NCBI GenBank assembly: GCA_012519455.1 | Contig: JAAYQE010000030.1 | Location: 1-34,174, forward strand | Reading direction: 5' to 3' | Length of the DNA stretch: 34,174 nt | Source of the DNA: Syntrophomonadaceae bacterium | GTDB lineage: Bacteria; Bacillota; Ch66; Ch109 | Part shown: positions 26,379-28,275 of the stretch, in pieces | Layout: each line of letters begins with the position of its first letter | Position numbering within the stretch: position 1 is the first letter of the stretch | The notes under the pieces: model-generated | Told to the model about the DNA's origin: nothing | What the model saw: only the letters and a program-made list of their open reading frames with translations | The model's database searches: none | Translations under genes and position numbers: made by a program

Positions 26379-26414
26379 TAAAGGGTGCCTAAAAAAATAT
26401 TTTGGCACCCTTTA
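26379..26414 (+). terminator. Rho-independent terminator
   Basis: An 11-bp stem TAAAGGGTGCC/GGCACCCTTTA, with an A/T-rich loop, closes the YmaF-like gene. Confidence 0.8.
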
Positions 26415-26415
26415 A

Positions 26416-26589
26416 CTAGAAAGCTTTCGGATCATGAAAATCAATATTTTCTAATAAAATACAAAAAGTTTGGAAATTCAACGTCTTTTTAATCTCGAAG
26501 TCGCTTAGATGCCCAAGGACGATGTGCCCTATTTCGTGCATTAATGTCCATCGAATGCGCTCAGGGAGCTTGTTTTTATTTATATAACA
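26416..26589 (-). pseudogene. ImmA/IrrE-type metallopeptidase fragment
   Basis: A minus-strand frame of 57 codons reads LPERIRWTLMHEIGHIVLGH and continues about 35 residues to a stop at 26416. This is the zinc-site segment of the ImmA/IrrE (DUF955) family, with HEIGH encoded by 26524-26538. The family is normally 120 residues or more. An in-frame stop cuts it off upstream (26590-26592), and no start codon or ribosome binding site precedes it, so the N-terminal half is lost. Intact ImmA proteins cleave an XRE repressor in integrative elements and phages. An XRE fragment lies about 0.9 kb upstream on the same strand. Confidence 0.75.
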
Positions 26590-26621
26590 TTAATGTCGAA
26601 ATGTCCTTAAAATGCCTATAA

Positions 26622-26652
26622 AAATACAAAAACCTGGCTTTTATTGCCTAGG
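26622..26652 (-). terminator. Terminator of the toxin-antitoxin pair
   Basis: On the minus strand CCTAGGC pairs with GCCAGG (one bulge) across AATAAAA and is followed by TTTTTGTATTTTT. It lies about 60 bases after the relE stop. Confidence 0.65.
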
Positions 26653-26712
26653 CTTCTAAGTCGTTTATTTTTTATTCTAAAGTTAAAGGGTATCGTTTAG
26701 GCTTGTATTTTA

Positions 26713-26994
26713 CTATTTTTTATAGATATCCCCGCGTGATCCTATGGCTTCGATGATTATTAATCGTTCTTCGATTTTTACGTTATAAATAAGCCGCAAG
26801 TCACCAACGCGGCACCTATACTTTTGGCTAGAACCCCGCAACTGTTTAATATTTGCTCCGTTTACGGGGTTTGCGGATATTTCCTCAATTGCAGTCGCGA
26901 TGCGTTTTTGGGTGGTCTTATCAACGCGTTTAAGATAGTTGCGAGGCTGGGCTAATAATTGGACATTAAAGGTCGAGTTCTCGCTTGAGTTCAT
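26713..26994 (-). CDS. RelE/ParE-family toxin
   Basis: This toxin of up to 93 residues is of the RelE/ParE superfamily, whose RelE members cleave mRNA on the ribosome and whose ParE members poison gyrase. The typical pattern is seen: an N-terminal helix pair with DKTTQKRIATAIEEI, then IKQLRGSSQKYRCRVGDLRLIYNV and the C-terminal IIIEAIGSRGDIYKK. The KYRCRVGDLRLIY strand is the family core. The start overlaps the antitoxin gene by 29 bases, which points to coupled translation. The ATG at 26994 has only a weak ribosome binding site. Promoter control is expected to come from the upstream antitoxin. Confidence 0.88.
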   Translation of the reverse strand: MNSSENSTFNVQLLAQPRNYLKRVDKTTQKRIATAIEEISANPVNGANIKQLRGSSQKYRCRVGDLRLIYNVKIEERLIIIEAIGSRGDIYKK

Positions 26995-27343
26995 CCCAGC
27001 TAACGCCGCTTTCCTGATATTGCTCCTTGCCCAAGGTTGCTTTTTCGCTTTCTGGCCAGTCTAAATAAATGATGTCACGGCAGGACGGACAGATGAATTC
27101 GTCATACCAGGTTTCATTTTTATTTACGTTTGGGTTATTTAGCAGATCAGCTAGTATCAAGGGCGTACCGCATGTGGAGCAAAACGGGTCAATGTAAAAT
27201 GGTTTATTTCCAGGCCGTGGCATGGCTGCGCTTTCTGGGTGTACGTTTTTTACTAGCTCTTCCAGATATTTTTTGGCTCTCGCTATGTTTTGCTCAGGAA
27301 GCCTGTCAACCAAGCGATGGAGATCCTCTTTGAGCAAGCTCAT
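26966..27343 (-). CDS. Zinc-ribbon-containing antitoxin
   Basis: This 125-residue partner of RelE has three visible parts. Residues 1-32 (LKEDLHRLVDRLPEQNIARAK...) match the N-terminal helix module of many RelE-associated antitoxins. Residues 50-95 hold two CxxC knuckles (Cys 55, 58, 85, 88) like a zinc ribbon. The end (ESGVSWDELKRELDL) is the usual toxin-binding tail. The ribbon replaces the short acidic linker usually found. The ATG at 27343 follows GAGGGG nine bases upstream; the GTG at 27352 overlaps that site and is rejected. Confidence 0.82.
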   Translation of the reverse strand: MSLLKEDLHRLVDRLPEQNIARAKKYLEELVKNVHPESAAMPRPGNKPFYIDPFCSTCGTPLILADLLNNPNVNKNETWYDEFICPSCRDIIYLDWPESEKATLGKEQYQESGVSWDELKRELDL

Positions 27344-27407
27344 TAATAACACCCCTCTTCATTTTCCCGTTGCAAGCATTTCGTGATACTTAATTTGCTC
27401 ACAAGCT

Positions 27408-27417
27408 AACGCGTTAA
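27408..27417. promoter_or_regulatory. Candidate operator palindrome upstream of the antitoxin
   Basis: TAACGCGTTA is a perfect 10-base palindrome about 65 bases upstream of the antitoxin start, where an autoregulatory antitoxin would bind. The assignment rests on position and symmetry only. Confidence 0.3.
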
Positions 27418-27440
27418 ATATATTATTTTGATATTAACCT

Positions 27441-27653
27441 TTAAAATTTAAACTTATTACTATTTTCGGTTTTTTCCTTGTGCTGCTTAATAAGTGCTTC
27501 TAGGGCATCCGCCACCTGATCAATGTTTTCTTCTGGCAGATCCTCAGCGCGAGCTATTACATCATAGAGTTTTTTAGATTCTAAAGTAGGTGGGGAGGGG
27601 TTGTTGCTGCGGCCAAGGAGGTAATCAACAGAAACCCTTGCTATTCCTGGCTT
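27441..27653 (-). pseudogene. C-terminal fragment of an XRE-family repressor
   Basis: A minus-strand frame of 70 codons begins KPGIARVSVDYLLGRSNNPS, the end of a HTH_3 repressor (the SVDYLLGRS segment marks the close of the helix-turn-helix domain). It continues through a helical tail with EDLPEENIDQVADALEALI to a stop at 27441. The DNA-binding helices are missing. An in-frame stop (27654-27656) lies just before the tRNA CCA end at 27658, so the gene is cut exactly at the tRNA. Together with the ImmA fragment this is what remains of an ImmR-ImmA type module. Confidence 0.72.
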
Positions 27654-27657
27654 TTAG

Positions 27658-27732
27658 TGGAGCTGATGGGGGGATTCGAACCCCCGACCTGCTCATTACG
27701 AGTGAGCTGCTCTACCCCTGAGCCACATCAGC
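27658..27732 (-). tRNA. tRNA-Thr (anticodon CGT)
   Basis: The cloverleaf runs on the minus strand from GCTGATG to CATCAGC with an encoded CCA end. The anticodon stem is GCTCA/TGAGC with loop CTCGTAA, giving anticodon CGT, which reads ACG (Thr). The T arm is GGGGGTTCGAATCCCCC. The 3' end abuts a broken XRE gene. Confidence 0.95.
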
Positions 27733-27875
27733 CTACATAAATTAAACCTATTGCTTCTCTAATATAAAGATAGACCCCTTATAACAGGTTACCCTATATC
27801 CAGACGGTATTTATTATAATTGATTCCTGAAAGCTTGGCAATAGGGGGGTGCGAAAGAAGCGGACCTTTCTAATA

Positions 27876-27954: not shown

Positions 27955-28191
27955 TTAACGGTCGTCGCCTCTGACATCGCGTGCCTCAATCCGGTTATCC
28001 CTGAAAAGCGGGATGAGCGAATAGATTCCCGCCAATCCTATCAGCGTGTAGATAACGCGGCTGGCTAGAGCAGCTGAACTGCCAAAGATGGCGGCAATCA
28101 AATCGTACTGAAATAGCCCTACGAGGCCCCAGTTGAGGGCGCCAATAATTACCAGAATGAGTGCTGTTTTATCAATTGCTGAGGTATTCAT
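27955..28191 (-). CDS. DUF378 family membrane protein
   Basis: This 78-residue protein has two membrane segments. The first, TALILVIIGALNWGLVGLF, contains the family's IGALNWGL motif. The second is YTLIGLAGIYSLIPLF. The short charged tail (RDNRIEARDVRGDDR) is cytoplasmic by the positive-inside rule. The ATG at 28191 follows GGGAGGTGG on the minus strand; the longer frame through 28227 is rejected because it would translate that ribosome binding site. Function is unknown. A 38-residue membrane protein gene lies upstream on the same strand. Confidence 0.88.
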   Translation of the reverse strand: MNTSAIDKTALILVIIGALNWGLVGLFQYDLIAAIFGSSAALASRVIYTLIGLAGIYSLIPLFRDNRIEARDVRGDDR

Positions 28192-28275
28192 AATTCCACC
28201 TCCCTTCCATTTGAATATTATTTCCAAATTCGAGAGAGAGAATACATGAAAAAGTTAAAAAGGGTAGGGAATAGT

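What the first reader, a model, noticed from the sequence alone, without database searches (positions are those of the whole stretch)
26416..27732. Eroded ImmR-ImmA module at tRNA-Thr with a surviving toxin-antitoxin pair
On one strand lie a tRNA-Thr, an XRE repressor C-terminus cut four bases from the tRNA end, a RelE-type pair, and an ImmA/IrrE fragment with HEIGH. ImmR-ImmA pairs control ICEBs1-like elements and related phages, and tRNA 3' ends are their common insertion sites. The simplest reading is a deleted integrative element whose addictive pair remained.
Basis: partly seen in the sequence, partly recalled or inferred. Interest (0 to 1): 0.7.

Follow-up and report, generated by a model that had tools for sequence, protein, structure and literature searches.

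The report
Phage-switch remnant with intact toxin-antitoxin pair
Beside a threonine tRNA gene, the broken control switch of a mobile element, most likely a temperate phage, survives around an intact toxin-antitoxin gene pair; the same pair sits at the same place in other broken phage switches, so that place looks like a slot for swappable gene cassettes.

Summary
On the minus strand lie an intact tRNA-Thr(CGT), 64 residues of an XRE repressor C-terminus, an intact antitoxin-RelE pair, and a ~32-residue HEIGH fragment of an ImmA (M78) protease. Both fragments match one XRE-ImmA pair that is contiguous in relatives, mostly phages. tRNA-Thr(CGT) is a real hotspot: five of 19 relatives examined have a tyrosine integrase facing it, two carry eroded elements bounded by a 46-nt tRNA repeat, and one further genome has an intact XRE-ImmA-Fic-integrase module there.

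The "simple deletion of an ICEBs1-like element" is not shown. The window has no integrase and no att repeat, its module reads away from the tRNA (canonical modules read toward it), and its relatives look like phages.

The toxin-antitoxin cassette was not merely left over. Close copies elsewhere sit behind XRE tails, and in two of them before ImmA, but in a different XRE/ImmA type. In intact phages of that type the same slot holds HicBA or an HSDR_N-domain gene, or nothing. The antitoxin is unusual: RelB-like N-terminus, zinc-ribbon insert without a family model, short C-terminal helix. Verdict: an eroded phage immunity module with a swappable toxin-antitoxin cassette; a new variant of a known kind.

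The parts
27658..27732 (-). tRNA-Thr(CGT), intact, only copy of this isoacceptor found in the genome; phylum-wide integration hotspot
   Evidence: ARAGORN; Rfam; other genome matches are different tRNAs
27813..27841 (-). tRNA promoter-like site TTGCCA-17-TATAAT (11 of 12)
   Evidence: consensus scan only, number found equals shuffle expectation
27636..27657 (-). tRNA trailer; no terminator hairpin, unlike G001; resembles the trailer beside an integrase in G005 (L007)
   Evidence: fold z +0.9 versus -3.4 in G001; alignment
27444..27635 (-). C-terminal 64 residues of an XRE repressor, HTH missing
   Evidence: E 6e-16 and 9.5e-15 in the phylum search; 4e-19 to L085 and 9e-17 to L088
27357..27371 (-). 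possible scrap of the tail of a different XRE carried along with the TA cassette
   Evidence: DNA match to L080-L082 extends to 27371; 16-nt comparison reached by 0.18% of background stretches; modest evidence
26966..27352 (-). antitoxin: RelB-like N-terminus, zinc ribbon (CxxC...CxxC), short C-terminal helix SWDELKREL
   Evidence: no family model above cutoff in Pfam or NCBIfam, none in PADLOC
26713..26994 (-). RelE/ParE-superfamily toxin, intact
   Evidence: PF05016 6e-8, phrog_1213 5e-19; 1wmi 1.6e-5; dN/dS 0.16-0.17 to intact copies
26627..26658 (-). terminator-like hairpin with T run behind RelE
   Evidence: fold z -2.9
26416..26589 (-). ImmA/M78 protease fragment with HEIGH; N-terminus and the rest of the protein missing
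   Evidence: E 5.5e-10 to L085 over 26583-26488
26379..26414 (.). strong hairpin between the ImmA fragment and the convergent ymaF gene; left border of the remnant

Best explanation
This is the eroded lysogeny-control module (XRE repressor plus ImmA-type protease) of an integrative element, most likely a temperate phage, next to the tRNA-Thr(CGT) hotspot. An intact type II toxin-antitoxin cassette (zinc-ribbon RelB-like antitoxin plus RelE) occupies the junction between the two broken genes. Shown: the fragments, their shared origin type, the hotspot, the intact and conserved pair, and the same order XRE-TA-ImmA in another module type. Inferred: in the living element ImmA would cleave the XRE repressor under stress, as in ICEBs1, and the cassette rode in the same operon; after erosion only the TA pair is kept, because losing the antitoxin exposes the cell to the RelE toxin. 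With the tRNA terminator gone the pair may be read through from the tRNA promoter, and the antitoxin presumably autorepresses and neutralises RelE. How the module came to read away from the tRNA (inversion, or an element attached on the other side) is unresolved.
For: XRE and ImmA fragments match the same contiguous XRE-ImmA pair in L085 and in viral L088. Intact XRE-ImmA-Fic-tyrosine integrase at tRNA-Thr(CGT) in L136. Tyrosine integrases facing tRNA-Thr(CGT) in L007, L009, L012, L013, L019 and, in the other orientation, an ORF with the integrase motif in L015. Eroded elements bounded by 46-nt tRNA repeats in L109 and L110. Intact TA with dN/dS 0.12-0.17 to relatives. TA homology stops at the RelE stop codon on one side and at 27357-27371 on the other. 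XRE tail-AT-RelE-ImmA in L081; AT-HicBA-ImmA in L082; XRE-AT in L079 and L080; intact XRE-HicBA-ImmA in phage L146; XRE-HSDR_N-ImmA in L154.
Against: No integrase homologue or att repeat in the window. Module orientation is opposite to the canonical one. Intact relatives of the window's own XRE-ImmA type have no cassette at the junction (0-3 nt gap). The left and right flanks are orthologous to two different G001 contigs, so the ancestral arrangement is not fixed. Function of the TA pair is untested. The genome is a draft in 277 contigs with 4.3% estimated contamination.
Confidence: 0.65

Rival explanations
1. Simple deletion of an ICEBs1-like conjugative element inserted in this tRNA-Thr, with its own TA pair left behind.
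For: tRNA-Thr(CGT) is used by an intact XRE-ImmA-integrase module in L136; both genes are eroded and the TA pair is intact.
Against: Orientation is reversed relative to the intact modules examined that have an identified integrase or tRNA; no integrase or att repeat; intact relatives of this XRE-ImmA type lack a TA pair between the genes; relatives look like phages, and no conjugation gene was seen among the window ORFs (no profile search for them was made).
Confidence: 0.1
2. The TA cassette inserted on its own into an already dead XRE-ImmA remnant; the XRE-TA-ImmA order here is coincidence.
For: Cassette homology is confined to the TA genes; the window XRE-ImmA type differs from the type found beside the cassette elsewhere; L151 has the cassette with no XRE or ImmA match.
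Against: The same order recurs in L081 and L082, and intact phages carry other cassettes in the same slot; the window may keep a scrap of the foreign XRE tail.
Confidence: 0.2
3. Assembly chimera: the contig joins a tRNA region to an unrelated prophage scrap.
For: Draft genome of 277 contigs with 4.3% contamination; in G001 the two flanks are on different contigs.
Against: Both flanks are orthologous to the same relative at similar identity; no second copy of any part of the stretch in the genome apart from other tRNAs.
Confidence: 0.05

Closest known systems
ImmR-ImmA switch of ICEBs1 and related phages
   Same: XRE repressor followed by an HExxH protease gene, upstream of an integrase near a tRNA in intact relatives
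   Different: here both genes are broken, a TA cassette separates them, orientation to the tRNA is reversed, no integrase; relatives are phage-type
Predicted three-component Xre / COG2856 / RelE systems (Makarova et al. 2009, PMC2701414)
   Same: XRE, COG2856 protease and a RelE toxin in one neighbourhood; the paper already links COG2856-Xre genes with RelE and PIN toxins
   Different: here RelE has its own antitoxin and the pair sits as an exchangeable cassette between XRE and ImmA
RelBE / ParDE type II toxin-antitoxin pairs
   Same: RelE/ParE-superfamily toxin, upstream overlapping antitoxin with RelB-like N-terminus
   Different: antitoxin has a zinc-ribbon insert with no Pfam or NCBIfam model above cutoff
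HicBA cassette in the XRE-ImmA slot of phage contig L146
   Same: TA pair at the same position between repressor and ImmA
   Different: unrelated TA family; complete module followed by a large serine recombinase

Membership tests
Type II RelE/ParE toxin-antitoxin | toxin of the ParE/RelE fold family | tested here: met
   PF05016 33.6 bits vs cutoff 23; phrog_1213 5e-19; 1wmi 1.6e-5
Type II RelE/ParE toxin-antitoxin | antitoxin gene directly upstream, overlapping | tested here: met
   29-nt overlap; found together again in L079 and L081
Type II RelE/ParE toxin-antitoxin | antitoxin in a named RelB family | tested here: not met
   no model above cutoff; only the N-terminal 40 residues match RelB-like antitoxins
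Type II RelE/ParE toxin-antitoxin | mRNA interferase (RelE_StbE) rather than gyrase poison (ParE) | tested here: inconclusive
   TIGR02385 23.1 bits, below cutoff 27.9
Type II RelE/ParE toxin-antitoxin | toxicity and neutralisation | not testable with these tools
   needs expression
ImmR-ImmA module | XRE repressor with HTH | tested here: not met
   only the C-terminal 64 residues remain
ImmR-ImmA module | M78 protease with HExxH | tested here: met
   HEIGH in a fragment, E 5.5e-10 to L085 ImmA; full length absent
ImmR-ImmA module | the two genes adjacent in one operon | tested here: not met
   about 0.85 kb and the TA pair lie between; gap 0-3 nt in relatives of this type
Integrated element at tRNA-Thr(CGT) | direct repeat of the tRNA 3' end | tested here: not met
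   none above shuffled background
Integrated element at tRNA-Thr(CGT) | integrase | tested here: not met
   tblastn of five integrases (L089, L110, L111, L136, L138) finds none in the window
ICEBs1-like conjugative element | conjugation genes | not tested
   no conjugation gene seen among window ORFs of 110 aa or more, no profile search done

The most novel reading that the evidence does not exclude
The junction between repressor and ImmA in a family of phages is a dedicated slot for swappable toxin-antitoxin and defence cassettes (HicBA, zinc-ribbon RelB-RelE, HSDR_N), so the phage's induction switch and the cassette are co-transcribed and ImmA could act on both; the zinc ribbon would make the antitoxin respond to zinc or thiol stress.
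Probability: 0.25. Interest if true: 0.65.

Novelty: new variant of a known kind. Interest (0 to 1): 0.48.

Why it matters
It ties a long-standing prediction (three-component Xre-COG2856-RelE systems, PMC2701414) to concrete loci: a phage contig with a TA pair between repressor and ImmA, and eroded remnants in which the toxin-antitoxin pair is still open while both switch genes are broken. That makes it testable whether the ImmA switch also controls the toxin. It also exposes an antitoxin architecture (RelB-like N-terminus plus zinc ribbon) that has no family model.

Tried and rejected
(1) A 14-nt direct repeat (27646-27659 and 26633-26646, 13 of 14) looked like att sites bracketing the XRE-TA block; rejected, because the second copy is the loop and 3' arm of the RelE terminator hairpin. 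(2) A 24-nt match of the XRE start to L079 was first taken for chance (E 0.011); reading the other frame showed a true XRE fragment there. (3) A G001 synteny break at the tRNA was considered; both G001 contigs end in a similar outward-facing repeat (sequences), so adjacency in G001 is possible and no break is claimed. (4) G001 as an empty site: rejected, its tRNA is followed by a Holin_LLH fragment, itself a phage remnant. (5) The AlphaFold model of the antitoxin is too poor to use (pLDDT 46), so no fold search was made. (6) GC content shows no distinct island. (7) The antitoxin found no match in phage records and only its zinc ribbon in plasmid records. (8) Papers naming a zinc-ribbon RelB-type antitoxin were sought; two searches gave nothing whose title or abstract fits; the papers themselves were not read.

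Full report
What is there. On the minus strand, ARAGORN and Rfam give an intact tRNA-Thr(CGT) at 27732-27658. After a 22-base trailer come 64 residues of an XRE repressor C-terminus (27635-27444), then the antitoxin ORF (27352-26966), the overlapping RelE ORF (26994-26713), a terminator-like hairpin (26658-26627) and an ImmA fragment with HEIGH (26589-26416), which ends at a strong hairpin shared with the convergent ymaF gene.

Is it more than chance? Yes. The XRE piece hits full-length XREs at E 4e-19 and 9e-17, and the phylum search finds relatives of it at 6e-16 (G120) and 9.5e-15 (G173). The ImmA piece and L085 ImmA match at 5.5e-10. RelE passes the Pfam cutoff. The XRE and ImmA pieces match the same pair in L085 (genome G173; its ImmA is cut by the contig end) and in viral contig L088, where XRE and ImmA lie back to back with 3 and 0 nt between them. 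So both scraps come from one module type, and about 90 N-terminal residues and most of the rest of ImmA are missing.

The tRNA site. In 40 relatives searched, 19 loci with tRNA-Thr(CGT) were fetched; the tRNA is followed by a tyrosine integrase whose C-terminus faces it in L007, L009, L012, L013 and L019, and an ORF with an integrase motif in the other orientation follows it in L015. L109 and L110 carry eroded elements between the tRNA and a 46-nt repeat of its 3' half. L136 has an intact XRE-ImmA-Fic-integrase module ending at tRNA-Thr(CGT). But in L136, and in L088, L089, L091, L137 and L138, the genes read toward the integrase or the tRNA; in the window they read away from the tRNA. The window has no tRNA repeat and no integrase homologue. 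A single deletion of a canonical element therefore does not explain the order. An inversion, or an element attached on the ymaF side and then deleted up to the tRNA, would. The window tRNA has lost the terminator hairpin that G001 has, so read-through from the tRNA promoter into the TA pair is possible, though the promoter scan as a whole is no better than shuffles.

G001, the nearest relative, has the right flank (histidine kinase, the small membrane-protein ORF at 27955-28227, tRNA-Thr) on one contig and the left flank up to 25169 on another; no DNA match was found between 25169 and 27646. Its tRNA is followed by a holin fragment, so it is not an empty site. Whether the two G001 contigs are adjacent cannot be told.

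The TA cassette. Close copies exist in five other genomes (G223, G173, G099, G212, G308). DNA homology is confined to the TA genes, from 27371 or 27357 to the RelE stop. In L080, L081 and L082 the antitoxin stands directly behind the C-terminal tail of an XRE of another type (motif SWWYRDTPP), and L079 keeps the upstream half of that XRE; in L081 RelE is followed by an ImmA with one frameshift, and in L082 a broken antitoxin is followed by HicBA and a broken ImmA. L151 has the cassette without XRE or ImmA, and a frameshifted RelE. RelE is truncated in L080. So XRE and ImmA are broken wherever they are recognisable beside the cassette, and the TA pair is intact in the window, L079 and L081. Intact phage modules of the SWW type carry HicBA (L146) or an HSDR_N-domain gene (L154) between XRE and ImmA, or nothing (L147); L145 has a gene with a sub-threshold HEPN match behind XRE at a contig end. 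The junction thus behaves like a slot for swappable cassettes; this rests on few loci. The window may keep 10-15 nt of the foreign XRE tail, which suggests that the cassette was brought in from such a module; the evidence is modest.

The antitoxin. Its N-terminal 40 residues match ordinary antitoxins that precede RelE-type toxins (L053, L055, L063) or, by my reading of their sequence, MazF/PemK-type toxins (L051, L052, L056, L062); L055 RelE is 40% identical to the window RelE. The middle is a zinc ribbon (PRPxNKPFYIDPxCxxCGT...WxDEFxCPxCRD.IYxDWPE) that also occurs fused to Fic in L050, in a MAG protein (L025), in a Paenibacillus frame (L155), and directly behind HTH-HicB-HicA on an Alicyclobacillus replicon that also has a terminase gene (L156). 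No Pfam or NCBIfam model passes its cutoff and PADLOC has none, and the structure model was poor. dN/dS is 0.12-0.14 for the antitoxin and 0.16-0.17 for RelE between the window and relatives: purifying selection over that divergence, which cannot be assigned to the time after erosion alone.

Mechanism. From established knowledge, ImmA-type proteases cleave their XRE repressor on stress and release the element. In the living phage the cassette would be in the same operon. After erosion the TA pair would persist because loss of the antitoxin leaves RelE active. In L080 and L151 the toxin is broken and the antitoxin intact, the harmless order of decay; L082, where the antitoxin itself is broken, no longer has RelE. 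Makarova et al. (PMC2701414) already noted Xre-COG2856 genes beside RelE and PIN toxins and proposed a three-component system; the present loci fit that neighbourhood but with a complete TA pair as an exchangeable insert.

Verdict. Observation confirmed; interpretation partly right; a new variant of a known kind, of moderate interest.

Noticed in passing
L146:483-4544, L154:3262-7592, L145:4851-6184: Phage contigs with an SWW-type XRE carry HicBA or an HSDR_N gene between XRE and ImmA; L145 has a possibly HEPN-like gene behind XRE at a contig end.
   Followed up: partly
L050:1480-2478: The antitoxin's zinc ribbon is fused to the N-terminus of a Fic-domain protein.
   Followed up: partly
L156:791-1707: On an Alicyclobacillus replicon with a terminase gene, HTH-HicB-HicA is followed by a short frame with the same zinc ribbon, next to a tyrosine integrase.
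   Followed up: no
L136:6304-10980: Complete XRE-ImmA-Fic-integrase module at tRNA-Thr(CGT); the Fic matches the PADLOC SoFic model strongly (E 2.8e-123), and the integrase has an internal HTH domain.
   Followed up: partly
L037:11305-11493: Holin_LLH fragment 3' of the orthologous tRNA-Thr in G001: another phage remnant at the same site.
   Followed up: no
L082:9546-10390: Two TA cassettes in one slot: a broken zinc-ribbon antitoxin followed by HicBA and a broken ImmA.
   Followed up: partly
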